Below are positions 3,980 to 60,365 of a DNA stretch of 64,000 nt, piece after piece. The notes beneath the pieces are model-generated. The model had not been told where the DNA came from. It was given only the letters and a program-made list of their open reading frames with translations, and did not search any database. Position 1 is the first letter of the stretch. Each line of letters starts with the position of its first letter. The translations under genes were made by a program, and so were the position numbers. The DNA lies in NCBI GenBank assembly GCA_964019695.1, contig OZ026531.1:5899701-5963700 (forward strand), in the 5' to 3' direction. The stretch is from Loripinus fragilis. Taxonomy: Eukaryota > Mollusca > Bivalvia > Lucinida > Lucinidae.

Positions 3980-4189
3980 CTTACTCAGCAAATCATAGAA
4001 GACCGCAAACCATTTATAGATGATCTCAATGCCACTGGCCTAGAGTTGATGGAACTGTGTGGTGATACGGATGCTGGTGAAATTCAGACTAAACTAGTCA
4101 GTGATAACGAGAGATTTGAGAAGTTGAAGCACCAGGCTAGGTCAAAGGTCAGAGAGTTGGCGGACATCAGACAAAACATGACACAAGAG
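3980..4189 (+). CDS. MACF1-like: Spectraplakin exon 3 of window (spectrin repeat)
   Basis: Acceptor CTACCTTTTACAG and donor GAG|GTATGA. The 210 bases (70 codons, phase 0 at both ends) start LTQQIIEDRKPFIDDLNATG and run to DIRQNMTQE. Helix B (IEDRKPFIDDLNATGLELMEL), a short loop (CGDTDAG) and helix C (NERFEKLKHQARSKVRELADI) are all visible. This repeat pattern is typical of the spectraplakin rod. Exon 2 supplies the preceding helix A, and exon 4 begins the next repeat. Confidence 0.9.
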
Positions 4190-4224
4190 GTATGATCTAT
4201 TTTTTAGAGGGGTGGGGGGTATCC

Positions 4225-4555
4225 GCTGCTTAGTACTGGTTAAACCCAGGACACCCATCCCAATATGGCTGAAAAAATTTTGAGCCGCGGCATGAGATTT
4301 CCAACAAGTTGACATTTTGACGTGTAGACTCTGACAAGCCTCTGCAGCCTTCTTATAAGCTTAGAAACTCCAAATTGTGTTCAGTCAGTAGCTTAACAAT
4401 CATAAAATACTCGAGCGACTAGCAAAGGCTCTGATCAGACTGGGCGTATGCGCAGGCTGATCTGAGGCTTTGCTGGTTGCACATTGTTGGAAATCTCATG
4501 CACTGGCTCAAATTGTCCACTGGGATGTAAAGAATCAAAGTAAACAAACAAACAA
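4225..4555 (+). mobile_element. SINE tail split by a fold-back element (family D)
   Basis: The 3' part of the tRNA-derived SINE (TTAGTACTGGTTAAACCCAG at 4230 and GGGATGTAAAGAATCAAA at 4523) is interrupted at 4283-4511 by a ~230-bp palindromic element. That element has ends GAGCCGCGGCATGAGATTTC and its complement, and a centre rich in CTGATCAGACTGG. A second copy of the fold-back is at 34938-35172. Confidence 0.65.
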
Positions 4556-4599
4556 AAGTATGATCTATTTTTGTGTTTCCTGAGAGTAAGCATAACCAG

Positions 4600-4770
4600 A
4601 CCTCCAGATAAGATGGAATAATTAAAAACAATATTTCAAATTTCTTAACCAAAACAGATGTTTTGGGTACTCTAAAGAAACGTCTTAATAAGACGGTTCT
4701 TTTGGGCACCCAAAACATATGTTTAAACTGAATGATATGAAAATAAATGAAACTTTATGCTCAAAATAGC
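4600..4770. mobile_element. Palindromic MITE (family A)
   Basis: Contains CTTAACCAAAACAGATG, the hairpin core AAGAAACGTCTTAATAAGAC GGTTCTTTT and the right arm ACATATGTTTAAACTGAATG. It is a diverged copy with the same layout as the family A element at 236-640. From 4771 to 5204 I see only AT-rich intron. Confidence 0.65.
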
Positions 4771-6990
4771 ATGTATCAATGCAGGACTGAAAAGGAGAAA
4801 TTGTGAGACAGGCCAAAACACAGCTTGTTTGAAAAATGAGTTATTCATGTAGTTGCAACATTTCATTTTTCCTCTTTATGATCGACCAGCCAGGCCCCAT
4901 GCTTAGTAAAAAAAATCTTCCTTGAGCTACTCAATTGAGCATGAAATTTATTCTTATAAGCTCATAAATATTAAAAATTGTTGGCATTTTAAAATTTATT
5001 AGCAGGATAAATACAACATCTGATTGTCTTTAAAAGTAAGAAAAAATCTTTACTTTTCTGCATTTCAGCTTTTAAGAGCAGTAGAAATATCATTCTCAGT
5101 TGAGTTGAGCATTAACAAAGTTTTATAAGCTTGGGGCCTGCTCTCTTTATCTTTGGTCAAGTGGGGGAAACACTTTTTTTTGCGATTTGCCTATTACATT
5201 TTAGGTTGCAGATTCTCTTGATAATCTCCTAGAAGATCTCTCTGGTCTGAACAGAGCTATTGTGAATGCCGACCCAATACCAGCTAATGCTGTCTGTATT
5301 TGTACATTATAGGTAGCAGATTCTCTTGACAACCTCCTAAAAGATCTCTTGGGTCTGAACAGAGCTATTGTGAATGCCGACCCAATACCAGCTAATGTTG
5401 TCTGTATTTGTACATTATAGGTAGCAGATTCTCTTGACAACCTCCTAGAAGATCTCTCGGGTCTGAACAGAGCTATTGTGAATGCCGACCCAATACCAGC
5501 TAATGCTGTCTGTATTTGTACATTATAGGTAGCAGATTCTCTTGACAACCTCCTAGAAGATCTCTCGGGTCTGAACAGAGCTATTGTGAATGCCGACCCA
5601 ATACCAGCTAATGTCTGTATTTGTACATTATAGGTAGCAGATTCTCTTGACAACCTCCTAGAAGATCTCTCGGGTCTGAACAGAGCTATTGTGAATGCCG
5701 ACCCAATACCAGCTAATGCTGTCTGTATTTGTACATTATAGGTAGCAGATTCTCTTGACAACCTCCTAGAAGATCTCTCGGGTCTGAACAGAGCTATTGT
5801 GAATGCCGACCCAATACCAGCTAATGTCTGTATTTGTACATTTTAGGTAGCAGATTCTCTTGACAACCTCCTAGAAGATCTGTCTGGTCTGAACCGAGCT
5901 ATTGTGAATGCCGACCCAATACCAGCTAATGTCTGTATTTGTACATTTTAGGTAGCAGATTCTCTTGACAACCTCCTAGAAGATCTGTCTGGTCTGAACA
6001 GAGCTATTGTGAATGCCTACCCAATACCAGCTAATGTCTGTATTTGTACATTTTAGGTAGCAGATTCTCTTGACAACCTCCTAGAAGATCTCTCTGGTCT
6101 AAACAGAGCTATTGTGAATGCCGACCCAATACCAGCTAATGTTGTCTGTATTTGTACATTATAGGTAGCCGATTCTCTTGACAACCTCCTAGAAGATCTC
6201 TCTGGTCTAAACAGAGCTATTGTGAATGCCGACCCAATACCAGCTAATGTTGTCTGTATTTATACATTTTAGGTAGCAGATTCTCTTGACAACCTCCTAG
6301 AAGATCTCTCTGGTCTGAACAGAGCTATTGTGAATGCCGACCCAATACCAGCTAATGCTGTCTGTATTTGTACATTATAGGTAGCAGATTCTCTTGACAA
6401 CCTCCTAGAGGATCTGTCTGGTCTGAACAGAGCTATTGTGAATGCCTACCCAATACCAGCTAATGTCTGTATTTGTACATTATAGGTAGCAGATTCTCTT
6501 GACAACCTCCTAGAAGATCTCTCTGGTCTGAACAGAGCTATTGTGAATGCCTACCCAATACCAGCTAATGTCTGTATTTGTACATTATAGGTAGCAGATT
6601 CTCTTGACAACCTCCTAGAAGATCTCTCTGGTCTGAACAGAGCTATTGTGAATGCCGACCCAATACCAGCTAATGTTGTCTGTATTTGTACATTATAGGT
6701 AGCAGATTCTCTTGACAACCTCCTAGAAGATCTCTCTGGTCTGAACAGAGCTATTGTGAATGCCTACCCAATACCAGCTAATGTCTGTATTTGTACATTT
6801 TAGGTAGCAGATTCTCTTGACAACCTCCTAGAAGATCTCTCTGGTCTGAACAGAGCTATTGTGAATGCCGACCCAATACCAGCTAATGTTGTCTGTATTT
6901 GTACATTATAGGTAGCAGACTCTCTTGACAACCTCCTAGAAGATCTCTCTGGTCTGAACAGAGCTATTGTGAATGCCTACCCAATACCAG

Positions 6991-9900
6991 CTAATGACTG
7001 TATTTGTACATTTTAGGTAGCAGATTCTCTTGACAACCTCCTAGAAGATCTCTCTGGTCTGAACAGAGCTATTGTGAATGCCGACCCAATACCAGCTAAT
7101 GCTGTCTGTATTTGTACATTATAGGTAGCAGATTCTCTTGACAACCTCCTAGAAGATCTCTCTGGTCTGAACAGAGCTATTGTGAATGCCTACACAATAC
7201 CAGCTAATGTCTGTATTTGTACATTTTAGGTAGCAGATTCTCTTGACAACCTCCTAGAAGATCTCTCTGGTTTGAACAGAGCTATTGTGAATGCCAACCC
7301 AATACCAGCTAATGTTGTCTGTATTTGTACATTAAAGGTAGCAGATTCTCTTGACAACCTCCTAGAAGATCTCTCTGGTCTGAACAGAGCTATTGTGAAT
7401 GCCGACCCAATACCAGCTAATGTTGTCTGTATTTATACATTATAGGTAGCCGATTCTCTTGACAACCTCCTAGAAGATCTCTCTGGTCTGAACAGAGCTA
7501 TTGTGAATGCTGACCCAATACCAGCTAATGTTGTCTGTATTTATACATTATAGGTAGCCGATTCTCTTGACAACCTCCTAGAAGATCTCTCTGGTCTGAA
7601 CAGAGCTATTGTGAATGCTGACCCAATACCAGCTAATGTTGTCTGTATTTATACATTATAGGTAGCCGATTCTCTTGACAACCTCCTAGAAGATCTCTCT
7701 GGTCTAAACAGAGCTATTGTGAATGCCGACCCAATACCAGCTAATGTTGTCTGTATTTGTACATTTTAGGTAGCAGATTCTCTTGACAACCTCCTAGAAG
7801 ATCTCTCTGGTCTGAACAGAGCTATTGTGAATGCCGACCCAATACCAGCTAATGCTGTCTGTATTTGTACATTATAGGTAGCCGATTCTCTTGACAACCT
7901 CCTAGAAGATCTCTCTGGTCTGAACAGAGCTATTGTGAATGCTGACCCAATACCAGCTAATGTTATCTGTATTTATACATTATAGGTAGCAGATTCTCTT
8001 GACAACCTCCTAGAAGATCTCTCTGGTCTGAACCGAGCTATTGTGAATGCTGACCCAATACCAGCTAATGCTGTCTGTATTTGTACATTATAGGTAGCAG
8101 ATTCTCTTGATAATCTCCTAGAAGATCTCTCTGGTCTGAACAGAGCTATTGTGAATGCTGACCCAATACAAGCTAATGCTGTCTGTATTTGTACATTATA
8201 GGTAGCAGATTCTCTTGACAACCTCCTAGAAGATCTCTCTGGTCTAAACAGAGCTATTGTGAATGCTGACCCAATACCAGCTAATGTTGTCTGTATTTAT
8301 ACATTTTAGGTAGCCGATTCTCTTGACAACCTCCTAGAAGATCTCTCTGGTCTGAACCGAGCTATTGTGAATGCCGACCCAATACCAGCTAATGTTGTCT
8401 GTATTTATACATTTTAGGTAGCAGATTCTCTTGACAACCTCCTAGAAGATCTCTCTGGTCTGAACAGAGCTATTGTGAATGCCGACCCAATACCAGCTAA
8501 TGCTGTCTGTATTTATACATTTTAGGTAGCAGATTCTCTTGACAACCTCCTAGAAGATCTCTCTGGTCTGAACAGAGCTATTGTGAATGCTGACCCAATA
8601 CCAGCTAATGTTGTCTGTATTTATACATTTTAGGTAGCAGATTCTCTTGACAACCTCCTAGAAGATCTCTCTGGTCTGAACAGAGCTATTGTGAATGCGG
8701 ACCCAATACCAGCTAATGCTGTCTGTATTTGTACATTATAGGTAGCCGATTCTCTTGACAACCTCCTAGAAGATCTCTCTGGTCTGAACAGAGCTATTGT
8801 GAATGCCTACCCAATACCAGCTAATGACTGTATTTGTACATTTTAGGTAGCAGATTCTCTTGACAACCTCCTAGAAGATCTCTCTGGTCTGAACAGAGCT
8901 ATTGTGAATGCCGACCCAATACCAGCTAATGCTGTCTGTATTTGTACATTATAGGTAGCAGATTCTCTTGACAACCTCCTAGAAGATCTCTCTGGTCTGA
9001 ACAGAGCTATTGTGAATGCCTACACAATACCAGCTAATGTCTGTATTTGTACATTTTAGGTAGCAGATTCTCTTGACAACCTCCTAGAAGATCTCTCTGG
9101 TTTGAACAGAGCTATTGTGAATGCCAACCCAATACCAGCTAATGTTGTCTGTATTTGTACATTAAAGGTAGCAGATTCTCTTGACAACCTCCTAGAAGAT
9201 CTCTCTGGTCTGAACAGAGCTATTGTGAATGCCGACCCAATACCAGCTAATGTTGTCTGTATTTATACATTATAGGTAGCAGATTCTCTTGACAACCTCC
9301 TAGAAGATCTGTCTGGTCTCAACAGAGCTATTGTGAATGCCGACCCAATACAAGCTAATGCTGTCTGTATTTGTACATTATAGGTAGCCGATTCTCTTGA
9401 CAACCTCCTAGAAGATCTCTCTGGTCTGAACAGAGCTATTGTGAATGCTGACCCAATACCAGCTAATGTTGTCTGTATTTATACATTATAGGTAGCCGAT
9501 TCTCTTGACAACCTCCTAGAAGATCTCTCTGGTCTGAACAGAGCTATTGTGAATGCTGACCCAATACCAGCTAATGTTGTCTGTATTTATACATTATAGG
9601 TAGCCGATTCTCTTGACAACCTCCTAGAAGATCTCTCTGGTCTAAACAGAGCTATTGTGAATGCCGACCCAATACCAGCTAATGTTGTCTGTATTTGTAC
9701 ATTTTAGGTAGCAGATTCTCTTGACAACCTCCTAGAAGATCTCTCTGGTCTGAACAGAGCTATTGTGAATGCCGACCCAATACCAGCTAATGCTGTCTGT
9801 ATTTGTACATTATAGGTAGCCGATTCTCTTGACAACCTCCTAGAAGATCTCTCTGGTCTGAACAGAGCTATTGTGAATGCTGACCCAATACCAGCTAATG

Positions 9901-12530
9901 TTATCTGTATTTATACATTATAGGTAGCAGATTCTCTTGACAACCTCCTAGAAGATCTCTCTGGTCTGAACCGAGCTATTGTGAATGCTGACCCAATACC
10001 AGCTAATGCTGTCTGTATTTGTACATTATAGGTAGCAGATTCTCTTGATAATCTCCTAGAAGATCTCTCTGGTCTGAACAGAGCTATTGTGAATGCTGAC
10101 CCAATACAAGCTAATGCTGTCTGTATTTGTACATTATAGGTAGCAGATTCTCTTGACAACCTCCTAGAAGATCTCTCTGGTCTAAACAGAGCTATTGTGA
10201 ATGCTGACCCAATACCAGCTAATGTTGTCTGTATTTATACATTTTAGGTAGCCGATTCTCTTGACAACCTCCTAGAAGATCTCTCTGGTCTGAACCGAGC
10301 TATTGTGAATGCCGACCCAATACCAGCTAATGTTGTCTGTATTTATACATTTTAGGTAGCAGATTCTCTTGACAACCTCCTAGAAGATCTCTCTGGTCTG
10401 AACAGAGCTATTGTGAATGCTGACCCAATACCAGCTAATGCTGTCTGTATTTATACATTTTAGGTAGCAGATTCTCTTGACAACCTCCTAGAAGATCTCT
10501 CTGGTCTGAACAGAGCTATTGTGAATGCTGACCCAATACCAGCTAATGTTGTCTGTATTTATACATTTTAGGTAGCAGATTCTCTTGACAACCTCCTAGA
10601 AGATCTCTCTGGTCTGAACAGAGCTATTGTGAATGCGGACCCAATACCAGCTAATGCTGTCTGTATTTGTACATTATAGGTAGCCGATTCTCTTGACAAC
10701 CTCCTAGAAGATCTCTCTGGTCTGAACAGAGCTATTGTGAATGCCTACCCAATACCAGCTAATGACTGTATTTGTACATTTTAGGTAGCAGATTCTCTTG
10801 ACAACCTCCTAGAAGATCTCTCTGGTCTGAACAGAGCTATTGTGAATGCCGACCCAATACCAGCTAATGCTGTCTGTATTTGTACATTATAGGTAGCAGA
10901 TTCTCTTGACAACCTCCTAGAAGATCTCTCTGGTCTGAACAGAGCTATTGTGAATGCCTACACAATACCAGCTAATGTCTGTATTTGTACATTTTAGGTA
11001 GCAGATTCTCTTGACAACCTCCTAGAAGATCTCTCTGGTTTGAACAGAGCTATTGTGAATGCCAACCCAATACCAGCTAATGTTGTCTGTATTTGTACAT
11101 TAAAGGTAGCAGATTCTCTTGACAACCTCCTAGAAGATCTCTCTGGTCTGAACAGAGCTATTGTGAATGCCGACCCAATACCAGCTAATGTTGTCTGTAT
11201 TTATACATTATAGGTAGCCGATTCTCTTGACAACCTCCTAGAAGATCTCTCTGGTCTGAACAGAGCTATTGTGAATGCTGACCCAATACCAGCTAATGTT
11301 GTCTGTATTTATACATTATAGGTAGCCGATTCTCTTGACAACCTCCTAGAAGATCTCTCTGGTCTGAACAGAGCTATTGTGAATGCTGACCCAATACCAG
11401 CTAATGTTGTCTGTATTTATACATTATAGGTAGCCGATTCTCTTGACAACCTCCTAGAAGATCTCTCTGGTCTAAACAGAGCTATTGTGAATGCCGACCC
11501 AATACCAGCTAATGTTGTCTGTATTTGTACATTTTAGGTAGCAGATTCTCTTGACAACCTCCTAGAAGATCTCTCTGGTCTGAACAGAGCTATTGTGAAT
11601 GCCGACCCAATACCAGCTAATGCTGTCTGTATTTGTACATTATAGGTAGCCGATTCTCTTGACAACCTCCTAGAAGATCTCTCTGGTCTGAACAGAGCTA
11701 TTGTGAATGCTGACCCAATACCAGCTAATGTTATCTGTATTTATACATTATAGGTAGCAGATTCTCTTGACAACCTCCTAGAAGATCTCTCTGGTCTGAA
11801 CCGAGCTATTGTGAATGCTGACCCAATACCAGCTAATGCTGTCTGTATTTGTACATTATAGGTAGCAGATTCTCTTGATAATCTCCTAGAAGATCTCTCT
11901 GGTCTGAACAGAGCTATTGTGAATGCTGACCCAATACAAGCTAATGCTGTCTGTATTTGTACATTATAGGTAGCAGATTCTCTTGACAACCTCCTAGAAG
12001 ATCTCTCTGGTCTAAACAGAGCTATTGTGAATGCTGACCCAATACCAGCTAATGTTGTCTGTATTTATACATTTTAGGTAGCCGATTCTCTTGACAACCT
12101 CCTAGAAGATCTCTCTGGTCTGAACCGAGCTATTGTGAATGCCGACCCAATACCAGCTAATGTTGTCTGTATTTATACATTTTAGGTAGCAGATTCTCTT
12201 GACAACCTCCTAGAAGATCTCTCTGGTCTGAACAGAGCTATTGTGAATGCCGACCCAATACCAGCTAATGCTGTCTGTATTTATACATTTTAGGTAGCAG
12301 ATTCTCTTGACAACCTCCTAGAAGATCTCTCTGGTCTGAACAGAGCTATTGTGAATGCTGACCCAATACCAGCTAATGTTGTCTGTATTTATACATTTTA
12401 GGTAGCAGATTCTCTTGACAACCTCCTAGAAGATCTCTCTGGTCTGAACAGAGCTATTGTGAATGCGGACCCAATACCAGCTAATGCTGTCTGTATTTGT
12501 ACATTATAGGTAGCCGATTCTCTTGACAAC
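6991..12530 (+). repeat. Higher-order repeat: three ~1.83-1.94-kb blocks inside the array
   Basis: Rare unit variants recur in the same order at fixed spacing. CTAATGACTG occurs at 6991, 8821 and 10759, and the GAATGCGGAC variant at about 8693, 10631 and 12461. Spacings are 1,830 or 1,938 bases, which differ by exactly one 108-bp unit. The extra unit is near 9270-9377 in the middle block. The blocks are nearly identical, so this is a recent amplification of 17-18-unit segments. Confidence 0.85.
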
Positions 12531-15239
12531 CTCCTAGAAGATCTCTCTGGTCTGAACAGAGCTATTGTGAATGCTGACCCAATACCAGCTAATGTTGTCT
12601 GTATTTATACATTATAGGTAGCCGATTCTCTTGACAACCTCCTAGAAGATCTCTCTGGTCTCAACAGAGCTATTGTGAATGCCGACCCAATACCAGCTAA
12701 TGTTGTCTGTATTTATACATTTTAGGTAGCCGATTCTCTTGACAACCTCCTAGAAGATCTCTCTGGTCTGAACAGAGCTATTGTGAATGCCGACCCAATA
12801 CCAGCTAATGTTGTCTGTATTTGTACATTTTAGGTAGCAGATTCTCTTGACAACCTCCTAGAAGATCTCTCTGGTCTGAACAGAGCTATTGTGAATGCCG
12901 ACCCAATACCAGCTAATGTTGTCTGTATTTATACATTTTAGGTAGCAGATTCTCTTGACAACCTCCTAGAAGATCTCTCTGGTCTGAACCGAGCTATTGT
13001 GAATGCCGACCCAATACCAGCTAATGTTGTCTGTATTTATACATTTTAGGTAGCAGATTCTCTTGACAACCTCCTAGAAGATCTCTTTGGTCTGAACAGA
13101 GCTATTGTGAATGCCTACCCAATACCAGCTAATGTCTGTATTTGTACATTTTAGGTAGCAGATTCTCTTGACAACCTCCTAGAAGATCTCTCTGGTCTGA
13201 ACAGAGCTATTGTGAATTCCGACCCAATACCAGCTAATGTTGTCTGTATTTGTACATTTTAGGTAGCAGATTCTCTTGACAACCTCCTAGAAGATCTCTC
13301 TGGTCTAAACCGAGCTATTGTGAATGCCTACCCAATACCAGCTAATGTCTGTATTTGTACATTTTAGGTAGCAGATTCTCTTGACAACCTCCTAGAAGAT
13401 CTCTCTGGTCTGAACAGAGCTATTGTGAATTCCGACCCAATACCAGCTAATGTTGTCTGTATTTGTACATTATAGGTAGCCGATTCTCTTGACAACCTCC
13501 TAGAAGATCTCTCTGGTCTGAACAGAGCTATTGTGAATGCCGACCCAATACCAGCTAATGTTGTCTGTATTTATACATTTTAGGTAGCAGATTCTCTTGA
13601 CAACCTCCTAGAAGATCTCTCTGGTCTGAACAGAGCTATTGTGAATGCCTACCCAATACCAGCTAATGTCTGTATTTGTACATTTTAGGTAGCAGATTCT
13701 CTTGACAACCTCCTAGAAGATCTCTCTGGTCTGAACAGAGCTATTGTGAATGCCGACCCAATACCAGCTAATGTCTGTATTTGTACATTTTAGGTAGCCG
13801 ATTCTCTTGACAACCTCCTAGAAGATCTCTCTGGTCTGAACAGAGCTATTGTGAATGCCGACCCAATACCAGCTAATGTTGTCTGTATTTATACATTTTA
13901 GGTAGCAGATTCTCTTGACAACCTCCTAGAAGATCTCTCTGGTCTGAACAGAGCTATTGTGAATGCCTACCCAATACCAGCTAATGTTGTCTGTATTTGT
14001 ACATTATAGGTAGCCGATTCTCTTGACAACCTCCTAGAAGATCTCTCGGGTCTGAACAGAGCTATTGTGAATGCCTACCCAATACCAGCTAATGTTGTCT
14101 GTATTTGTACATTATAGGTAGCAGATTCTCTTGACAACCTCCTAAAAGATCTCTCGGGTCTGAACAGAGCTATTGTGAATGCCTACCCAATACCAGCTAA
14201 TGTTGTCTGTATTTGTACATTTTAGGTAGCAGATTCTCTTGACAACCTCCTAGAAGATCTCTCTGGTCTGAACAGAGCTATTGTGAATGCTGACCCAATA
14301 CCAGCTAATGTTGTCTGTATTTATACATTATAGGTAGCCGATTCTCTTGACAACCTCCTAGAAGATCTCTCTGGTCTGAACAGAGCTATTGTGAATGCAG
14401 ACCCAATACCAGCTAATGTTGTCTGTATTTATACATTTTAGGTAGCCGATTCTCTTGACAACCTCCTAGAAGATCTCTCTGGTCTAAACAGAGCTATTGT
14501 GAATGCCTACCCAATACCAGCTAATGTTGTCTGTATTTGTACATTATAGGTAGCAGATTCTCTTGACAACCTCCTAAAAGATCTCTCGGGTCTGAACAGA
14601 GCTATTGTGAATGCCTACCCAATACCAGCTAATGTTGTCTGTATTTGTACATTTTAGGTAGCAGATTCTCTTGACAACCTCCTAGAAGATCTCTCTGGTC
14701 TGAACAGAGCTATTGTGAATGCCGACCCAATACCAGCTAATGTTGTCTGTATTTATACATTATAGGTAGCCGATTCTCTTGACAACCTCCTAGAAGATCT
14801 CTCTGGTCTCAACAGAGCTATTGTGAATGCTGACCCAATACCAGCTAATGCTGTCTGTATTTGTACATTATAGGTAGCAGATTCTCTTGACAACCTCCTA
14901 GAAGATCTCTCTGGTCTGAACAGAGCTATTGTGAATGCTGACCCAATACCAGCTAATGTTGTCTGTATTTGTACATTATAGGTAGCAGATTCTCTTGACA
15001 ATCTCCTAGAAGATCTCTCTGGTCTAAACAGAGCTATTGTGAATGCTGACCCAATACCAGCTAATGTTGTCTGTATTTGTACATTATAGGTAGCAGATTC
15101 TCTTGACAACCTCCTAGAAGATCTCTCTGGTCTGAACAGAGCTATTGTGAATGCCGACCCAATACCAGCTAATGTTGTCTGTATTTGTACATTATAGGTA
15201 GCAGATTCTCTTGACAATCTCCTAGAAGATCTCTCTGGT

Positions 15240-18200
15240 CTGAACAGAGCTATTGTGAATGCCGACCCAATACTAGCTAATGTAGTCTGTATTTGTACAT
15301 TATAGGTAGCAGATTCTCTTGACAACCTCCTAGAAGATCTCTCTGGTCTGAACAGAGCTATTGTGAATGCCGACCCAATACCAGCTAATGTTGTCTGTAT
15401 TTGTACATTATAGGTAGCAGATTCTCTTGACAACCTCCTAGAAGATCTCTCTGGTCTGAACAGAGCTATTGTGAATGCCGACCCAATACCAGCTAATGTT
15501 GTTTGTATTTGTACATTATAGGTAGCAGATTCTCTTGACAACCTCCTAGAAGATCTCTCTGGTCTGAACAGAGCTATTGTGAATGCTGACCCAATACCAG
15601 CCAATGTTGTCTGTATTTGTATATTATAGGTAGCAGATTCTCTTGACAACCTCCTAGAAGATCTCTCTGGTCTGAACAGAGCTATTGTGAATGCCGACCC
15701 AATACCAGCTAATGTTGTCTGTATTTGTACATTATAGGTAGCAGATTCTCTTGACAACCTCCTAGAAGATCTCTCTGGTCTAAACAGAGCTATTGTGAAT
15801 GCCGACCCAATACCAGCTAATGTTGTTTGTATTTGTACATTATAGGTAGCAGATTCTCTTGACAACCTCCTAGAAGATCTCTCTGGTCTCAACAGAGCTA
15901 TTGTGAATGCTGACCCAATACCAGCTAATGCTGTCTGTATTTGTACATTATAGGTAGCAGATTCTCTTGACAATCTCCTAGAAGATCTCTCTGGCCTCAA
16001 CAGAGCTATTGTGAATGCTGACCCAATACCAGCTAATGCTGTCTGTATTTGTACATTATAGGTAGCAGATTCTCTTGACAACCTCCTAGAAGATCTCTCT
16101 GGTCTGAACAGAGCTATTGTGAATGCCGACCCAATACCAGCTAATGTTGTCTGTATTTGTACATTATAGGTAGCAGATTCTCTTGACAATCTCCTAGAAG
16201 ATCTCTCTGGTCTCAACAGAGCTATTGTGAATGCTGACCCAATACCAGCTAATGCTGTCTGTATTTGTACATTATAGGTAGCAGATTCTCTTGACAACCT
16301 CCTAGAAGATCTCTCTGGTCTGAACAGAGCTATTGTGAATGCCGACCCAATACCAGCTAATGTCTGTATTTGTACATTATAGGTAGCAGATTCTCTTGAC
16401 AACCTCCTAGAAGATCTCTCTGGTCTAAACAGAGCTATTGTGAATGCTGACCCAATACCAGCTAATGCTGTCTGTATTTGTACATTATAGGTAGCAGATT
16501 CTCTTGACAACCTCCTAGAAGATCTCTCTGGTCTCAACAGAGCTATTGTGAATGCCGACCCAATACTAGCTAATGTTGTCTGTATTTGTACATTATAGGT
16601 AGCAGATTCTCTTGACAACCTCCTAGAAGATCTCTCTGGTCTCAACAGAGCTATTGTGAATGCCGACCCAATACCAGCCAATGTTGTCTGTATTTATACA
16701 TTATAGGTAGCAGATTCTCTTGACAACCTCCTAGAAGATCTCTCTGGTCTAAACAGAGCTATTGTGAATGCCGACCCAATACCAGCTAATGTTGTCTGTA
16801 TTTGTACATTATAGGTAGCAGATTCTCTTGACAACCTCCTAGAAGATCTCTCTGGTCTGAACAGAGCTATTGTGAATGCCGACCCAATACTAGCTAGTGT
16901 TGTCTGCATTTGTACATTATAGGTAGCAGATTCTCTTGACAACCTCCTAGAAGATCTCTCTGGTCTAAACAGAGCTATTGTGAATGCTGACCCAATACCA
17001 GCTAATGTTGTCTGTATTTGTACATTATAGGTAGCAGATTCTCTTGACAATCTCCTAGAAGATCTCTCTGGTCTCAACAGAGCTATTGTGAATGCCGACC
17101 CAATACCAGCCAATGTTGTCTGTATTTATACATTATAGGTAGCAGATTCTCTTGATAACCTCCTAGAAGATCTCTCTGGTCTCAACAGAGCTATTGTGAA
17201 TGCCGACCCAATACCAGATAATGTTGTCTGTATTTGTACATTATAGGTAGCAGATTCTCTTGACAACCTCCTAGAAGATCTGTCTGGTCTCAACAGAGCT
17301 ATTGTGAATGCTGACCCAATACCAGCTAATGCTGTCTGTATTTGTACATTTTAGGTAGCAGATTCTCTTGATAACCTCCTAGAAGATCTCTCTGGTCTGA
17401 ACAGATCTATTGTGAATGCCGACCCAATACCAGCTAATGTTGTCTGTATTTGTACATTATAGGTAGCAGATTCTCTTGACAACCTCCTAGAAGATCTGTC
17501 TGGTCTCAACAGAGCTATTGTGAATGCCGACCCAATACTAGCTAGTGTTGTCTGTATTTGTACATTATAGGTAGCAGATTCTCTTGACAACCTCCTAGAA
17601 GATCTCTCTGGTCTGAACAGAGCTATTGTGAATGCTGACCCAATACCAGCTAATGTCTGTATTTGTACATTTTAGGTAGCAGATTCTCTTGACAACCTCC
17701 TAGAAGATCTCTCTGGTCTGAACAGAGCTATTGTGAATGCCGACCCAATACCAGCTAATGTTGTTTGTATTTGTACATTATAGGTAGCAGATTCTCTTGA
17801 CAATCTCCTAGAAGATCTCTCTGGTCTGAACAGAGCTATTGTGAATGCCGACCCAATACCAGCTAATGTCTGTATTTGTACATTATAGGTAGCAGATTCT
17901 CTTGACAACCTCCTAGAAGATCTCTCTGGTCTGAACAGAGCTATTGTGAATGCTGACCCAATACCAGCCAATGTTGTCTGTATTTGTATATTATAGGTAG
18001 CAGATTCTCTTGACAACCTCCTAGAAGATCTCTCTGGTCTGAACAGAGCTATTGTGAATGCCGACCCAATACCAGCTAATGTTGTCTGTATTTGTACATT
18101 ATAGGTAGCAGATTCTCTTGACAACCTCCTAGAAGATCTCTCTGGTCTAAACAGAGCTATTGTGAATGCCGACCCAATACCAGCTAATGTTGTTTGTATT

Positions 18201-20000
18201 TGTACATTATAGGTAGCAGATTCTCTTGACAACCTCCTAGAAGATCTCTCTGGTCTCAACAGAGCTATTGTGAATGCTGACCCAATACCAGCTAATGCTG
18301 TCTGTATTTGTACATTATAGGTAGCAGATTCTCTTGACAATCTCCTAGAAGATCTCTCTGGTCTCAACAGAGCTATTGTGAATGCTGACCCAATACCAGC
18401 TAATGCTGTCTGTATTTGTACATTATAGGTAGCAGATTCTCTTGACAACCTCCTAGAAGATCTCTCTGGTCTGAACAGAGCTATTGTGAATGCCGACCCA
18501 ATACCAGCTAATGTTGTCTGTATTTGTACATTATAGGTAGCAGATTCTCTTGACAATCTCCTAGAAGATCTCTCTGGTCTCAACAGAGCTATTGTGAATG
18601 CTGACCCAATACCAGCTAATGCTGTCTGTATTTGTACATTATAGGTAGCAGATTCTCTTGACAACCTCCTAGAAGATCTCTCTGGTCTGAACAGAGCTAT
18701 TGTGAATGCCGACCCAATACCAGCTAATGTCTGTATTTGTACATTATAGGTAGCAGATTCTCTTGACAACCTCCTAGAAGATCTCTCTGGTCTAAACAGA
18801 GCTATTGTGAATGCTGACCCAATACCAGCTAATGCTGTCTGTATTTGTACATTATAGGTAGCAGATTCTCTTGACAACCTCCTAGAAGATCTCTCTGGTC
18901 TCAACAGAGCTATTGTGAATGCCGACCCAATACTAGCTAATGTTGTCTGTATTTGTACATTATAGGTAGCAGATTCTCTTGACAACCTCCTAGAAGATCT
19001 CTCTGGTCTCAACAGAGCTATTGTGAATGCCGACCCAATACTAGCTAGTGTTGTCTGTATTTGTACATTATAGGTAGCAGATTCTCTTGACAACCTCCTA
19101 GAAGATCTCTCTGGTCTAAACAGAGCTATTGTGAATGCCGACCCAATACCAGCTAATGTTGTCTGTATTTGTACATTATAGGTAGCAGATTCTCTTGACA
19201 ACCTCCTAGAAGATCTCTCTGGTCTGAACAGAGCTATTGTGTATGCCGACCCAATACCAGCTAATGTTGTCTGTATTTGTACATTTTAGGTAGCAGATTC
19301 TCTTGACAACCTCCTAGAAGATCTCTCTGGTCTCAACAGAGCTATTGTGTATGCCGACCCAATACCAGCTAATGTTGTCTGTATTTGTACATTTTAGGTA
19401 GCAGATTCTCTTGACAACCTCCTAGAAGATCTCTCTGGTCTGAACAGAGCTATTGTGAATGCTGACCCAATACCAGCTAATGTTGTCTGTATTTGTACAT
19501 TATAGGTAGCAGATTCTCTTGACAATCTCCTAGAAGATCTCTCTGGTCTCAACAGAGCTATTGTGAATGCCGACCCAATACCAGCCAATGTTGTCTGTAT
19601 TTATACATTATAGGTAGCAGATTCTCTTGATAACCTCCTAGAAGATCTCTCTGGTCTCAACAGAGCTATTGTGAATGCCGACCCAATACCAGCTAATGTT
19701 GTCTGTATTTGTACATTATAGGTAGCAGATTCTCTTGACAACCTCCTAGAAGATCTGTCTGGTCTCAACAGAGCTATTGTGAATGCCGACCCAATACTAG
19801 CTAGTGTTGTCTGTATTTGTACATTATAGGTAGCAGATTCTCTTGACAACCTCCTAGAAGATCTCTCTGGTCTGAACAGAGCTATTGTGAATGCTGACCC
19901 AATACCAGTTAATGTCTGTATTTGTACATTTTAGGTAGCAGATTCTCTTGACAACCTCCTAGAAGATCTCTCTGGTCTGAACAGAGCTATTGTGAATGCT
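15240..20000 (+). repeat. Two-copy ~2.4-kb segmental duplication inside the array
   Basis: The marker CCAATGTTGTCTGTATTTGT with the rare TATATTATAG acceptor occurs at 15601 and again at 17968 (shift 2,367). The marker CCAATG...TTTATACATT occurs at 17110 and 19585 (shift 2,475, one 108-bp unit more). Variant order between these markers is the same in both copies. Block borders are approximate. Confidence 0.75.
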
Positions 20001-23000
20001 GACCCAATACCAGCTAATGTTGTCTGTATTTGTACATTATAGGTAGCAGATTCTCTTGACAACCTCCTAGAAGATCTCTCTGGTCTGAACAGAGCTATTG
20101 TGAATGCCGACCCAATGCCAGCTAATGTCTGTATTTGTACATTATAGGTAGCAGATTCTCTTGACAACCTCCTAGAAGATCTCTCTGGTCTGAACAGAGC
20201 TATTGTGAATGCTGACCCAATACCAGCTAATGTTGTCTGTATTTGTACATTATAGGTAGCAGATTCTCTTGACAATCTCCTAGAAGATCTCTCTGGTCTA
20301 AACAGAGCTATTGTGAATGCTGACCCAATACCAGCTAATGTTGTCTGTATTTGTACATTATAGGTAGCAGATTCTCTTGACAACCTCCTAGAAGATCTCT
20401 CTGGTCTGAACAGAGCTATTGTGAATGCCGACCCAATACCAGCTAATGTTGTCTGTATTTGTACATTATAGGTAGCAGATTCTCTTGACAATCTCCTAGA
20501 TGATCTCTCTGGTCTGAACAGAGCTATTGTGAATGCCGACCCAATACCAGCTAATGTTGTCTGTATTTGTACATTATAGGTAGCAGATTCTCTTGACAAC
20601 CTCCTAGAAGATCTCTCTGGTCTGAACAGAGCTATTGTGAATGCCGACCCAATACCAGCTAATGTTGTCTGTATTTGTACATTATAGGGAGCAGATTCTC
20701 TTGACAACCTCCTAGAAGATCTCTCTGGTCTGAACAGAGCTATTGTGAATGCTGACCCAATACCAGCTAATGTTGTCTGTATTTGTACATTATAGGTAGC
20801 AGATTCTCTTGACAACCTCCTAGAAGATCTCTCTGGTCTGAACAGAGCTATTGTGAATGTTGGCCCAATACCAGCTAATGTCTGTATTTGTACTTTATAG
20901 GTGGCAGATTCTCTTGACAACCTCCTAGAAGATCTCTCTGGTCTGAACAGAGCTATTGTGAATGTTGGCCCAATACCAGCTAATGTCTGTTTTTGTACAT
21001 TTTAGGTAGCAGATTCTCTTGACAACCTCCTAGAAGATCTCTCTGGTCTCAACAGAGCTATTGTGAATGCTGACCCAATACCAGCTAATGTTGTCTGTAT
21101 TTGTACATTATAGGTAGCAGATTCTCTTGACAACCTCCTAGAAGATCTCTCTGGTCTGAACAGAGCTATTGTGAATGTTGGCCCAATACCAGCTCATGTC
21201 TGTATTTGTACATTATAGGTGGCAGATTCTCTTGACAACCTCCTAGAAGATCTCTCTGGTCTGAACAGAGCTATTGTGAATGTTGGCCCAATACCAGCTA
21301 ATGTCTGTATTTGTACATTTTAGGTAGCAGATTCTCTTGACAACCTCCTAGAAGATCTCTCTGGTCTGAACAGAGCTATTGTGAATGCTGACCCAATACC
21401 AGCTAATGCTGTCTGTATTTTTACATTTTAGGTAGCAGATTCTCTTGACAACCTCCTAGAAGATCTCTCTGGTCTGAACAGAGCTATTGTGAATGCTGAC
21501 CCAATACCAGCTAATGTTGTCTGTATTTGTACATTTTAGGTAGCAGATTCTCTTGACAACCTCCTAGAAGATCTCTCTGGTCTGAACAGAGCTATTGTGA
21601 ATGTTGACCCAATACCAGCTAATGTTGTCTGTATTTGTACATTATAGGTAGCAGATTCTCTTGACAACCTCCTAGAAGATCTCTCTGGTCTAAACAGAGC
21701 TATTGTGAATGCTGATCCAATACCAGCTAATGTTGTCTGTATTTGTACATTATAGGTAGCAGATTCTCTTGACAACCTCCTAGAAGATCTCTCTGGTCTG
21801 AACAGAGCTATTGTGAATGCCGACCCAATACCAGCTAATGTTGTCTGTATTTGTACATTATAGGTAGCAGATTCTCTTGACAACCTCCTAGAAGATCTCT
21901 CTGGTCTGAACAGAGCTATTGTGAATGCAGACCCAATACCAGCTAGTGTTGTCTGTATTTGTACATTATAGGTAGCAGATTCTCTTGACAATCTCCTAGA
22001 AGATCTCTCTGGTCTGAACAGAGCTATTGTGAATGCCGACCCAATACCAGCTAATGTTGTCTGTATTTGTACATTATAGGTAGCAGATTCTCTTGACAAC
22101 CTCCTAGAAGATCTCTCTGGTCTGAACAGAGCTATTGTGAATGCTGACCCAATACCAGCTAATGTTGTCTGTATTTGTACATTATAGGTAGCAGATTCTC
22201 TTGACAACCTCCTAGAAGATCTCTCTGGTCTCAATAGAGCTATTGTGAATGCTGACCCAATACCAGCTAATGTTGTCTGTATTTGTACATTTTAGGTAGC
22301 AGATTCTCTTGACAACCTCCTAGAAGATCTCTCTGGTCTGAACAGAGCTATTGTGAATGTTGGCCCAATACCAGCTAATGTCTGTATTTGTACATTTTAG
22401 GTAGCAGATTCTCTTGACAACCTCCTAGAAGATCTCTCTGGTCTCAACAGAGCTATTGTGAATGCTGACCCAATACCAGCTAATGTCTGTATTTGTACAT
22501 TATAGGTAGCAGATTCTCTTGACAACCTCCTAGAAGATCTCTCTGGTCTGAACAGAGCTATTGTGAATGTTGGCCCAATACCAGCTAATGTCTGTATTTG
22601 TACATTTTAGGTAGCAGATTCTCTTGACAACCTCCTAGAAGATCTCTCTGGTCTGAACAGAGCTATTGTGAATGTTGGCCCAATACCAGCTAATGTCTGT
22701 ATTTGTACATTATAGGTGGCAGATTCTCTTGACAACCTCCTAGAAGATCTCTCTGGTCTGAACAGAGCTATTGTGAATGTTGGCCCAATACCAGCTAATG
22801 TCTGTATTTGTACATTTTAGGTAGCAGATTCTCTTGACAACCTCCTAGAAGATCTCTCTGGTCTGAACAGAGCTATTGTGAATGCTGACCCAATACCAGC
22901 TAATGCTGTCTGTATTTGTACATTTTAGGTAGCAGATTCTCTTGACAACCTCCTAGAAGATCTCTCTGGTCTGAACAGAGCTATTGTGAATGCTGACCCA

Positions 23001-23786
23001 ATACCAGCTAATGTCTGTATTTGTACATTTTAGGTAGCAGATTCTCTTGACAACCTCCTAGAAGATCTCTCTGGTCTGAACAGAGCTATTGTGAATGCTG
23101 ACCCAATACCAGCTAATGCTGTCTGTATTTGTACATTTTAGGTAGCAGATTCTCTTGACAACCTCCTAGAAGATCTCTCTGGTCTGAACAGAGCTATTGT
23201 GAATGCTGATCCAATACCAGCTAATGTCTGTATTTGTACATTATAGGTAGCAGATTCTCTTGACAACCTCCTAGAAGATCTCTCTGGTCTGAACAGAGCT
23301 ATTGTGAATGCCGACCCAATACCAGCTAATGCTGTCTGTATTTGTACATTATAGGTAGCAGATTCTCTTGACAACCTCCTAGAAGATCTCTCTGGTCTGA
23401 ACAGAGCTATTGTGAATGCTGACCCAATACCAGCTAATGTTGTCTGTATTTGTACATTATAGGTAGCAGATTCTCTTGACAACCTCCTAGAAGATCTCTC
23501 TGGTCTGAACAGAGCTATTGTGAATGCTGACCCAATACCAGCTAATGTTGTCTGTATTTGTACATTATAGGTAGCAGATTCTCTTGACAACCTCCTAGAA
23601 GATCTCTCTGGTCTCAATAGAGCTATTGTGAATGCCGACCCAATACCAGCTAATGTTGTCTGTATTTGTACATTATAGGTAGCAGATTCTCTTGACAATC
23701 TCCTAGAAGATCTCTCTGGTCTAAACAGAGCTATTGTGAATGCCAACCCAATACCAGCTAATGCTGTCTGTATTTGTACATTATAG

Positions 23787-23906
23787 GTAGCAGATTCTCT
23801 TGACAACCTCCTAGAAGATCTCTCTGGTCTCAATAGAGCTATTGTGAATGCCGACCCAATACCAGCTAGTCCTGATAAACTCAAGGATGATCTTGAAGAA
23901 AACAAG
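23787..23906 (+). CDS. MACF1-like: Spectraplakin exon 4 of window (spectrin repeat)
   Basis: The only complete version of the exon whose start is repeated in the upstream array. Acceptor ACATTATAG and donor AAG|GTAGGC. The 120 bases (40 codons, phase 0 both ends) read VADSLDNLLEDLSGLNRAI, then VNADPIPASPDKLKDDLEENK. This is helix A of a spectrin repeat, the linker (PIPASPDKL) and the beginning of helix B. It is in frame with exon 3 (…MTQE) and exon 5 (IIQEEL…). All earlier units would run into TAG if spliced here and not re-spliced, so this acceptor must be reached for full-length protein. Confidence 0.9.
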
Positions 23907-24722
23907 GTAGGCTAGTAATAGAAAGTGTCAAGCATTTGTCCCAAACTTTTAGTGTCCTATCATGCTTTGCATTCGATAAATGTGAGAAATCTCAATGTAT
24001 GTGTTTTTCCACCCTTAAAGCCTACTGGAGCAGACAATAAATTTGTATTTTTATGCCTCCTGGTTTGAGAGAAGATTGGGGTCACATTATATTTGGTCTG
24101 TGTGTGAACATGCTAAAAAGTTAAATTGCATATATTTTGGGCATGTAATGTTTCACAAACACATCTTTGAGCTGACTTCCATATTTCATGAATTAAGAAA
24201 CTTTCACTTGTGAAGAGCCATATAAAAATTTGGAGCTGAAGATGCTGATAAATTAAAACAAAAACTAAAATGGAATATCTGTTTGGCATTAATGGTTAAG
24301 GCAGATTTTTTAATTTAAACTTATGATATAAGCAACAGAAATGATTTGGAAAGTTTTTGCCAGCAGCCCCTTGTAGTGAACAGTAGACCAATCAAATACA
24401 ATAAAAGCATGAGTGGAGAGTTCTATTTGGCAGATGGATTACATAGGTCACTGAGGAAGAGAGAGCTGGTTGCTTTACTTTAATCATGTCTTGCTGTCGT
24501 GTGGCAGTTAGTGTTCTCAGTCTCTTCCTTGCTTCCTCGCAGTGCTGTCTGTAGTCTGGAATTGTTGGAAGAGATAGCGGGTTTCATTATTTTAATCCTG
24601 TCTTGCTGTCATGTGGCTGTTAGTGTTCTGTGTCGCTTCCTCGCGGTACTTTGGGTTGGATTGTAGTCTGTGACTATGACATTATCTGGTCATACTCACT
24701 CGCTATATTGACTCTATTCTAG
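23907..24722. other. Intron 4, dispersed repeat remnant
   Basis: AT-rich intron. Positions about 24440-24700 hold an inverted relative of a dispersed repeat also seen at 32860-33020 and 45110-45270 (shared AGAGAGCTG, GCTTTACTTTAA, TCTTGCTGTC). No exon-like segment was found. Confidence 0.4.
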
Positions 24723-24822
24723 ATTATTCAAGAAGAGTTAGAGAGACAGAGACCACATATACAGAGAGCTGTAGAGATGGCTAAGCATGTAATAGCACAA
24801 GGAGGAGAAGACCCGGTAGAAG
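24723..24822 (+). CDS. MACF1-like: Spectraplakin exon 5 of window (spectrin repeat)
   Basis: Acceptor GACTCTATTCTAG and donor AAG|GTATTT. The 100 bases start IIQEELERQRPHIQRAVEMA and end GGEDPVE plus one base of a split Val codon completed by exon 6. It provides helix B of the repeat begun in exon 4. Residue pattern and phase both fit. No alternative frame is open with these splice sites. Confidence 0.85.
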
Positions 24823-25589: not shown

Positions 25590-25925
25590 GGGTTCTCACA
25601 TTTTCTGGGATTGTAACAGCAATTTTCTGGGATTGTAATAGCAATTTCTGGGTTTATAACAGCAATTTTCTAGGATTATAACAGTAATTTCTGGGATTAT
25701 AACAGTAATTTCCTGGGATTGTAACAGCAAGTTGCTGGGATTCTAACAGCAATTTTCTGGGATTGTTACAGTAATTCCCTGAGATTGTAGCAACATTTTT
25801 CTGGGAATGTAACAGCAATTTTCTGGGATTGTAACAGCAATTTCTGGGAATTATTAGTAATTTTCTGGGATTATAACAGCAATTTGCTAGGATTGTAAAA
25901 AAAAATTCTGGTATTGTAGCAGCAA
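25590..25925 (+). repeat. ~22-bp minisatellite
   Basis: About fourteen degenerate copies of TTTCTGGGATTGTAACAGCA AT in intron 5. There is no conserved reading frame. Confidence 0.75.
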
Positions 25926-31851: not shown

Positions 31852-32025
31852 ATTTCCCTCTTACAAAAGTAGCAATCCATTGGAACAATCATAAATCCAT
31901 TTGAGTCAAAAAAATTCAAACTGCAATTGTCAGAGTTATTGCTAAATATTGACAATAGAAAGTTGACTTATAGTTTTATAGACTATGAGTTATGCAATAA
32001 TTCATGATTGAAACTGCTATTTCAG

Positions 32026-32113
32026 GCTATTGACTCCTGGCTTCCAGCCTCAGAACACAAGTTGGCCAGTATGACACCCCTCTCTGCCAACCCAGATATG
32101 CTGCAGGATCAAA
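32026..32113 (+). pseudogene. MACF1-like: Decayed tandem copy of exon 8
   Basis: It copies the first 88 bases of exon 8, including the acceptor (CTGCTATTTCAG), with four or fewer differences (SWLPASEHKLASMTPLSAN against SMRPLSAN). After GATCAAA the homology stops. The codons IEELK and the donor are replaced by GTATCATCTGCC and a family B hairpin (32178-32252). Using it with exon 8 would duplicate a helix, and no good donor is seen. I read it as a dead duplicate, though a weak GTATCA donor leaves alternative splicing possible. Confidence 0.7.
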
Positions 32114-32335
32114 GTATCATCTGCCAAAGTCGTCTGCTGCATCGTGCTGCTATCATCACGGGCGAATTTCAGCATATAGGCAAACAGTGTGGACTTTGAT
32201 CAGACTGCTCCTAGAGGAGCAGTCTGATCTGGGTCCACACTGTTGGCTACAGAGGTGTTTTTTAAAAGAACTAGTTGACATTTTGTCATAATTAGCAGTG
32301 GAAGAGTTAATACTTGATTAAAACTGTTATTTCAG

Positions 32336-32437
32336 GCTATTGACTCATGGCTTCCAGCCTCAGAACACAAGTTGGCTAGTATGAGACCCCTCTCTGCCAA
32401 CCCAGATATGCTGCAGGATCAAATTGAAGAATTGAAG
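32336..32437 (+). CDS. MACF1-like: Spectraplakin exon 8 of window (spectrin repeat)
   Basis: Acceptor CTGTTATTTCAG and donor AAG|GTAACA. The 102 bases (34 codons, phase 0) start AIDSWLPASEHKLASMRPLS and end ANPDMLQDQIEELK. This is helix A with its Trp, the linker RPLSANPDML and the start of helix B, the same architecture as exons 2 and 4. A truncated copy lies 310 bases upstream. Confidence 0.9.
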
Positions 32438-49629: not shown

Positions 49630-50823
49630 GCTAATGCACGAAGCCGGGTTCGTGTTGGCGAGGGTTTCAGCAAAGAGTTTGTGGTGAAGGTCGGGGTCCA
49701 TCAGGGATCCGTACTCAGTCCCTTACTCTTCATCATTGTGCTGGAGGCCTTGTCACGTGAGTTTCCGGCTGGTGTTCCCTGGGAGGACCTATATGCAGAT
49801 GATCTTGTCATCATTGCTGACTCCCTAGAGGAATGTGTCAGGAGGCTCTTGATATGGAAAGAAGCCATGGAGAAGAAGGGATTGAGGGTGAATGCAGGAA
49901 AGACAAAAGTCATGATCTGTGGTACAGGCCTGGACCTCTTGCAGAGTTCAGGCCAATACCCATGCGCTGTCTGTCGTACAGGAGTGGGCAACAACAGCAT
50001 CTACTGCAATGGCTGTAAACTTTGGGTGCATAAGAAATGCAGTGGGCTACAAAGACTGACACCAAATCCTGATTATAGGTGTGCACGGTGCATGGGAAAT
50101 GCTCGCCCTATTGACGGCAGACCACAGAGTGAAGTCCAGGTTGGACCTGATAAGCTTGAGGTGGTAGCTTCCTTCTGCTACCTAGGTGACATGCTTTCTG
50201 CTGGTGGAGGCTGTGAAATGGCGGTCACTACTCGTGTGAAAACCGCCTGGAAGAAGTTCAGGGAGCTACTACCAGTTCTCACATCCCGCCACCTCTCTTA
50301 CAAGACCCGTGGCCATGTGTACAGCTCTTGCGTGCGGAGCGCCATGCTCCATGCCAGTGAAACTTGGCCACTTACCAAGACGAACCTGCAGCGCTTGCAA
50401 CGCAATGATAGGGCCATGATCAGACAGATCTGCAGTATCAAGCCAGAGGATGTGGCCAGGGTAAGGTCAAGCGAGCTACTGGCAAAGCTTCAGCTTGAGG
50501 ACCTCAAACTCATTTTGAGAGAGAGAAGGCTTCGCTGGTTTGGGCATGTGGCGCGTTCGAGTGGTGCAATCAGAACAGCATATGATATGCAGATTGACGG
50601 CAAGCGGGGGGCAGGGAGGCCCAAGCAAACATGGAAGAAACTGACAGAGAAAGACTGCCGTGAGTGGAAGCTCACCACAGTTGACCCTCAAGAAAGGAGC
50701 ACCTGGAGATCAGGTGTGAGATCTGCTATGCGTGCAGCTAGCCAGTTACCTGGAAAGGGGCCCACTGATGTGGATGATGCACCTGCACTTTAATCAAAAA
50801 TCCGATTATGATGATGATGATAA
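49630..50823 (+). mobile_element. 5'-truncated non-LTR retrotransposon (LINE), C-terminal reverse transcriptase ORF
   Basis: An open frame runs from 49630 to 50793. The 370-residue part from 49681 has GVHQGSVLSPLLF (RT block), catalytic YADD at residues 38-41, and NAGKTKVM. A C4HC3 PHD-like finger follows (C95, C98, C109, C112, H117, C120, C134, C137), and then the YLGDML and RRLRWFGHVARS motifs common after the RT domain. The N-terminal endonuclease and first RT blocks are missing, so it is a dead-on-arrival copy. The 3' end is a short (GAT)n tail, as in RTE-like elements, but the clade is not certain. Reverse transcriptase would have served only its own mobility. Confidence 0.9.
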
Positions 50824-57776: not shown

Positions 57777-57794
57777 GAAATGCAGAAGGTTTGA

Positions 57795-60169: not shown

Positions 60170-60365
60170 TTTGTGGCTAATATAATGTAGTATCAGAAAA
60201 TCATAGTGTACAAAATTCCCCCTTGGGGGGGGGAAGGAGGTCTATAGCCAGCTCAAGGCCTATAGGTATTCTCACGGCAACGCCCATTTAGTTCTCACAT
60301 AACTTTTATCATTCAACTTATACAATGCCTGTATTCACCATAAATTATGTTATCGGTTTTTTCAG

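What the first reader, a model, noticed from the sequence alone, without database searches (positions are those of the whole stretch)
5205..23786. 18.6-kb array made from a splice acceptor plus the start of a spectraplakin exon
About 173 tandem units of 105/108 bp each carry a 3' splice site and 27-28 codons of exon 4 of a conserved cytoskeletal gene. Only the last unit is a complete exon. A satellite that starts exactly at an exon's acceptor and sits inside an essential gene is unusual. It creates about 173 competing acceptors that, if used alone, hit an in-frame TAG.
Basis: partly seen in the sequence, partly recalled or inferred. Interest (0 to 1): 0.85.

Follow-up and report, generated by a model that had tools for sequence, protein, structure and literature searches.

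The report
Satellite built from an exon's beginning
Inside one intron of a mollusc cytoskeleton gene sit 173 tandem copies of the front part of the next exon, each with its own splice acceptor but no good donor, so only the last and complete copy is expected to be used; it is a striking natural test of how cells choose a splice site.

Summary
Positions 5205-23786 hold 173 contiguous units (139 of 108 bp, 34 of 105 bp): the first 84 nt of a spectraplakin exon plus 21-24 nt ending in AG. The 174th copy (23787-23906) is the complete exon with a donor. All 174 acceptors keep AG; 170 of 173 decoys hold an in-frame TAG. Block structure argues against a simple assembly artefact; copy number is untested.

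Most likely mechanism (inferred, no RNA data): the array grew by tandem duplication across a 3' splice site and is removed within a 19.6-kb intron, because only the last acceptor is followed by a good donor (exon definition). Two additions: (1) variation among decoys is biased to synonymous changes (20 of 37; about 10 expected), a coding signature in units that read into a stop; (2) another exon of the gene has one truncated upstream copy of the same design, perhaps the first step. Genome-wide searches did not complete or unscored. Closest known cases: the dual-specific splice-site array of polyubiquitin and intron gain by tandem duplication.

The parts
3980..4189 (+). exon 3 (window numbering), 70 codons, donor GAG|GTATGA
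   Evidence: aligns to MACF1 relatives
4190..23786 (+). intron 3, 19,597 nt, of which 18,582 nt are the array
5205..23786 (+). 173 decoy units of 108 or 105 bp (172 of them GT...AG), each an exon head of 84 nt and an acceptor tail
5205..5312 (+). unit 1, next to the presumably original intron end (pyrimidine-rich, no yTnAy match); differs from the consensus at 3 exon sites, all synonymous
7230..7337 (+). unit 20, one of 3 decoys without an in-frame stop of their own (the others start at 9060 and 10998)
6921..12574 (+). higher-order blocks; exact repeat of 1,886 bp at 6921-8806 and 10689-12574
23571..23678 (+). unit 172, identical to the functional exon over its first 81 nt
23787..23906 (+). 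exon 4, the functional 174th copy, 120 nt, phase 0-0, donor AAG|GTAGGC
24723..24822 (+). exon 5
31998..32113 (+). single truncated upstream copy of exon 8: 28 nt of intron end with AG plus the first 88 nt of the exon, without the exon end and donor
32336..32437 (+). complete exon 8 with donor AAG|GTAACA

Best explanation
A tandem duplication once joined the end of intron 3 (branch point, pyrimidine tract, AG) to the first 84 nt of exon 4. That left a truncated copy upstream of the intact exon. Because a truncated copy has an acceptor but no good donor, it is invisible under exon definition and nearly neutral, so unequal exchange and gene conversion could amplify it to 173 copies. In the pre-mRNA the whole array is removed as part of intron 3, from the exon-3 donor to the last acceptor, the only one with a real donor close behind it (120 nt). 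Shown: anatomy, frame, stops, lack of good donors, block duplications, exchange among units. Inferred: exon definition, the splicing outcome and near-neutrality.
For: 174 of 174 acceptors keep AG. A yTnAy branch-point-like motif lies 23 or 26 nt upstream of the acceptor in 162 of 174 copies (motif recalled). 170 of 173 units hold an in-frame TAG, so decoy use is unproductive. Exact block repeats of 679-1,886 bp at offsets of 1,938, 3,768 and 2,367 bp and neighbour similarity well above shuffled order (mean difference 4.20 against 4.97, sd 0.11) fit unequal exchange. 64 exon-head haplotypes from 37 distinct mutations, and all four combinations at 5 of 36 pairs of common biallelic sites (7 of 231 of all such pairs), fit exchange or recurrent mutation. 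The same kind of duplication exists once more, in two copies, at exon 8 (the only other one among 14 exon stretches tested, some with rough ends). RNA folding gives no sign of a special structure (z -0.02 to 0.95, 4 of 4 segments folded).
Against: No RNA data exist here. Intron-definition splicing would favour early decoys, and unit 1 keeps a pyrimidine-rich acceptor. A passive, neutral array does not predict the synonymous excess (20 of 37 against about 10 expected). A simulation with selection on the last copy alone did not reproduce it (S fraction 0.264-0.289; without any selection 0.262-0.272).
Confidence: 0.62

Rival explanations
1. Self-clearing array. Nearly every boundary is AG|GT, so each unit, or a run of units, is itself a GT...AG stretch. 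If exon 3 is joined to a decoy, the junction remakes a donor (GAG|GTAGCA) and later rounds of splicing remove the remaining units until the last exon, as with dual-specific splice sites or recursive splicing.
For: AG|GT at 173 of 174 boundaries; 172 of 173 units are GT...AG. Dual-specific sites can work with weaker motifs than single sites, and introns inside human tandem repeats are enriched for them (PMC10809524: abstract, passages and Discussion read).
Against: The donor half is weak: TAG|GTAGCA -1.25, TAG|GTAGCC -0.91, remade GAG|GTAGCA -0.66 or GAG|GTAGCC -0.32; of 1,985 GT sites in 4200-5180 and 24000-60000, 14.1% score at least -1.25 and 10.8% at least -0.66. No unit has a good downstream donor of the kind that recursive exons have (passages of PMC8605326). 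GT at the exon start also follows from a Val codon, which Sinanodonta shares, while Biomphalaria has Ala there.
Confidence: 0.1
2. The decoys act: they bind U2AF/U2 and slow or block splicing of intron 3, or they are used and give truncated, mostly decay-prone transcripts, so the array tunes spectraplakin output and copy-number alleles differ in it.
For: Acceptor signals with a branch-point-like motif in 162 of 174 copies; stops in 170 of 173 decoys. Decoy exons that promote intron retention are known (PMC12017769, passages read).
Against: In the OGT example the decoy's weak 5' splice sites matter; these units have no donor near the strength of this gene's own, though OGT's weak sites were not scored here for comparison. 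No expression data.
Confidence: 0.18
3. Assembly artefact: the array length, or part of its copies, was created or multiplied during assembly.
For: Long exact block repeats (up to 1,886 bp) could partly be mis-joins or merged haplotypes.
Against: 98 distinct unit types among 174, regional alleles with limited ranges, substitutions and a single class of 3-bp indel, continuous flanking exons.
Confidence: 0.08

Closest known systems
Dual-specific splice site (AGGT) array of the polyubiquitin gene UBC, and VCX3A (PMC10809524)
   Same: Head-to-tail units, a multiple of 3 long, bounded by AG|GT, inside one gene; the authors suggest that such expansions are tolerated because splicing can remove them.
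   Different: UBC units are complete coding modules that may be kept. Here each unit is an incomplete exon plus an intron end, and 170 of 173 hold a stop. 173 decoy units against 9 in human UBC. Donor half weak; use as a donor not shown.
[quoted passage not shown] potato RdRp case, PMC4974935, passages read)
   Same: The duplicated segment spans an intron end and an exon start and inherits branch site, pyrimidine tract and acceptor.
   Different: On the simplest reading no new intron and no inserted exon: the existing intron grew by 18.6 kb. The potato case is a single duplication.
Recursive splicing at ratchet points (PMC8605326, passages read)
   Same: Juxtaposed AG|GT inside a long intron.
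   Different: Weak donor half, no recursive exon with a good downstream donor, spacing of 105-108 nt.
Decoy exons that promote intron retention (OGT; PMC12017769, passages read)
   Same: Extra 3' splice sites inside an intron, expected to be spliced rarely.
   Different: OGT's decoy has weak donors that matter; here no site scores near the gene's own donors, and copies are numerous and tandem.
Satellite-like arrays of bivalves, e.g. carried by Helentrons in oyster (PMC7492417; start of the abstract seen in a search listing only)
   Same: Tandem monomers in a mollusc genome.
   Different: This monomer is the local exon itself; no dispersed copy in the window (the genome-wide search gave no result).

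Membership tests
Dual-specific splice-site array (UBC type) | AG|GT at the boundary of each tandem unit | tested here: met
   173 of 174 boundaries AGGT, 1 AGGG
Dual-specific splice-site array (UBC type) | sites used both as 5' and as 3' splice sites | not testable with these tools
   no RNA data; the commonest donor half, TAG|GTAGCA, scores a weak -1.25
Dual-specific splice-site array (UBC type) | a retained unit stays in frame and codes | tested here: not met
   unit lengths are multiples of 3, but 170 of 173 contain an in-frame TAG
Recursive splicing ratchet point | juxtaposed acceptor and good donor | tested here: not met
   AG|GT present, donor part GTAGCA weak on a matrix recalled from memory
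Recursive splicing ratchet point | recursive exon with a downstream donor | tested here: not met
   no donor-like site above 0.21 in the array
Tandem genomic duplication across a 3' splice site | copies include intron end and exon start with their signals | tested here: met
   173 units and the exon-8 copy
Tandem genomic duplication across a 3' splice site | creates a new intron | tested here: inconclusive
   the simplest reading is a longer old intron; splicing itself not observed
Decoy exon | intronic acceptor plus weak donor that promotes intron retention | tested here: inconclusive
   acceptor yes; no donor near the gene's own, but known decoys have weak donors too and were not scored; retention not observable
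Dispersed satellite DNA | copies at other loci | tested here: inconclusive
   none elsewhere in the window; the genome search had candidates that were not scored, later calls not answered
Spectraplakin (MACF1/dystonin) gene | sequence kinship to named members and spectrin repeats | tested here: met
   actin-binding and GAR parts were not looked for

The most novel reading that the evidence does not exclude
The decoys are a reserve of exon heads under coding constraint. Array and functional exon exchange sequence, so that the gene can replace the head of exon 4 with any of 173 stored versions. The AG|GT boundaries let splicing clear whatever lies between, which makes expansion and contraction by whole units invisible in the protein. 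Such a splice-neutral, self-clearing exon bank would be a new kind of intragenic satellite.
Probability: 0.12. Interest if true: 0.88.

Novelty: new variant of a known kind. Interest (0 to 1): 0.66.

Why it matters
173 nearly identical acceptors stand before one real one that differs mainly in having the rest of the exon and a donor behind it. That is a natural experiment on exon definition, first-come acceptor choice and the limit of decoy tolerance. It also suggests a route by which a coding gene can grow a satellite without harm, with a possible one-copy early stage at another exon of the same gene. The synonymous excess in units that read into a stop needs an explanation, and population data could supply one.

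Tried and rejected
RNA structure hiding the decoy acceptors: not supported, 4 of 4 folded segments look like shuffles.

Unit donors that would make decoys cassette exons (for example AAT|GTCTGT, -1.93, and CAT|GTCTGT, -1.76, 1 copy): judged unlikely.

Conserved AG as a sign of selection on acceptors: not claimed, because 64 of 108 columns are invariant.

Unit lengths in multiples of 3 as a sign of selection: not claimed, one 3-bp indel class explains them.

Synonymous excess as an effect of another frame: rejected. The other two forward frames give 9 and 9 of 37; reverse frames give 8, 9 and 18 (P 0.0026 for the last, whose wobble falls on the same columns).

Simulations (parameters chosen by hand, illustrative only; 6, 8 and 12 repeats per setting). 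Selection on the last copy alone: S fraction 0.264-0.289. In one search, where every run selects on the last copy: blocks only 0.291, blocks plus conversion 0.275, 3'-end growth 0.311 and 0.264, with conversion 0.228, conversion out of the functional exon 0.270, selection on every unit 0.506. In one search: growth from a functional exon swapped among alleles 0.608-0.664 (but the alleles were made synonymous by construction), the same without swapping 0.280. Observed 0.541. None fits in full: the every-unit run gives too many common non-synonymous variants (9.8 against 4 observed) and too few haplotypes (31 against 64); the allelic runs give too few mutations (about 12 S and 7 N against 20 and 17) and 39-43 haplotypes; several others have far too little variety. 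The data do not decide.

Relatives: a second protein search with 784 joined residues gave 2 proteins, both already found.

Literature listings seen: 8 of 8; 15 of 49; 12 of 51; 7 of 7; 4 of 4; 10 of 240; 8 of 159; none found. Four papers were opened, none read whole.
Full report
What is there. The window holds part of a spectraplakin gene on the plus strand. Joined exons match MACF1 of the snail Biomphalaria glabrata at 54% identity over the whole 402-residue query, and two partial proteins of the freshwater mussel Sinanodonta woodiana at 65% (55% of the query) and 76% (44%). Pfam gives spectrin repeats (E 1.4e-26). Against solved structures the best of 5 weak hits was dystrophin (E 0.0071). 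The assembly has 1.99 Gb in 685 contigs and the window is C20:5899701-5963700. I infer a mollusc, probably a bivalve; no tool named the species.

The array. From 5205 to 23786 there are 173 units without interruption, 139 of 108 bp and 34 of 105 bp; 172 of 173 are GT...AG. Each has 84 nt matching the start of exon 4 (28 codons), then 21 or 24 nt ending in AG. The 174th copy continues into the complete exon 23787-23906 (120 nt, phase 0-0) and its donor AAG|GTAGGC. AG is kept at 174 of 174 acceptors, AG|GT at 173 of 174 boundaries, and a yTnAy motif lies 23 or 26 nt before the acceptor in 162 of 174. 170 of 173 decoys contain exactly one in-frame stop, the TAG of the acceptor itself; units 20, 37 and 55 have none and run into the stop of the next unit. 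The array makes up 18,582 of the 19,597 nt of intron 3. The real acceptor now lies inside the array: its branch-point-like motif and tail belong to unit 173.

Real or artefact. 98 of 174 unit sequences are distinct (the last was cut at 90 nt). Variants have regional ranges. Blocks of about 17-18 units repeat three times (roughly units 18-35, 35-52, 52-68) and of about 21-22 units twice (roughly 96-115, 117-136), with exact stretches of 679-1,886 bp. Neighbouring units are more alike than in shuffled order (mean difference 4.20 against 4.97, sd 0.11). 64 exon-head haplotypes from 37 distinct mutations, and all four combinations at 7 of 231 biallelic pairs (5 of 36 common ones), point to exchange among units, though recurrent mutation can contribute. 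These are the marks of unequal exchange and conversion. The exact copy number remains untested.

Splicing logic. The best donor-like site in the array scores 0.21 (3 copies); the five real donors scored are 1.57, 3.15, 4.43, 4.62 and 5.8 (simple matrix from memory). So each decoy is an acceptor without a good donor, and under exon definition only the last copy is an exon. This is the mechanism I commit to (0.62). It is inferred: no RNA was seen. Skipping exon 4 altogether would keep the frame, since exon 4 is 120 nt and exons 3 and 5 meet in phase 0; that would lose 40 residues.

Coding signature. In the 81 exon columns compared there are 37 distinct mutations among the 173 decoys: 20 synonymous, against 9.7-11.4 expected for transition bias 1-4 and CpG factor 1 or 10 (P at most 0.00075 in 4,000 draws each; for the 13 variants in 7 or more units, 9 synonymous, P up to 0.0045). 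Variants in 5 or more units are 10 of 14 synonymous, singletons 4 of 10. The contrast of common and rare is itself not significant (Fisher P 0.17). Mean heterozygosity is 0.018, 0.014 and 0.068 at codon positions 1, 2, 3, and 0.047 in the acceptor tail. The other two forward frames give counts near expectation; of the reverse frames only the one with the same wobble columns is raised. So the units carry the mark of selection on the protein although each reads into a stop.

Where the signature may come from. Selection on the last copy alone does not give it in simulation (0.264-0.289). Either the units were repeatedly copied from functional alleles rich in synonymous variants (0.61-0.66, where the alleles were synonymous by construction), or the units themselves are constrained (0.506). 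Neither simulation fits all measures (see Tried and rejected). I favour the first, because bivalves are very polymorphic (recalled), because unit 172 is identical to the functional exon over 81 nt, and because the change at position 48 occurs only in units 159 and 172 besides the functional exon. Non-synonymous variants in the NADPIP stretch (D to Y in 18 units, A to V in 9) suggest that many units are relaxed.

A second instance. Exon 8 (32336-32437) has a truncated copy at 31998-32113: 28 nt of intron end with AG plus the first 88 nt of the exon, 109 of 116 identical, without the last 14 nt and the donor. Of 14 exon stretches compared with the window (some with rough ends), 2 have further copies: exon 4 and exon 8. 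This looks like the first step of the same process and makes it less of a freak event.

A lead. The intron position therefore seems shared; why the model breaks there is unknown.

Comparison. The nearest published thing I found is the polyubiquitin gene UBC, a tandem array of AG|GT sites that bound each unit. The boundary rule is met here; use as a donor was not testable, and the coding-unit rule is not met. The potato intron-gain case shows the same kind of duplication, spanning an acceptor, once (passages). Recursive splicing fails two tested features. Decoy exons remain undecided. Among the titles and abstract starts listed by searches (several lists capped) none describes an array like this, and 52 and 53 found no paper; the library lacks most subscription journals.

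Limits. Genome-wide copies, haplotigs and other arrays could not be checked: one search was answered without scoring and the others did not complete.

Noticed in passing
31998-32437: Truncated upstream copy of exon 8 with its acceptor and without its donor; the same design as the array units, in one copy.
   Followed up: yes
P0003 and P0004 (Sinanodonta woodiana proteins): Two partial gene models with consecutive numbers meet exactly at the exon 3/exon 4 junction where the array sits here.
   Followed up: partly
5204-23911, minus strand: The array is open on the reverse strand for long stretches (up to 646 codons, 14756-16693), a by-product of the repeat; not taken as a gene.
   Followed up: partly
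49630-50790: Plus-strand open frame with reverse transcriptase (E 5.8e-13) and PHD-finger matches, among the exons of the gene: probably remains of a retroelement.
   Followed up: partly
56565-60241, minus strand: Three adjoining long open frames (410, 352, 476 codons) without any Pfam match at 0.01; possibly a mobile element.
   Followed up: partly
28030-28884 and 25600-25925: Further tandem arrays (190-bp unit, 4.5 copies; 22/43-bp unit) between exons of the same gene; none of the 14 exon stretches matches them.
   Followed up: partly
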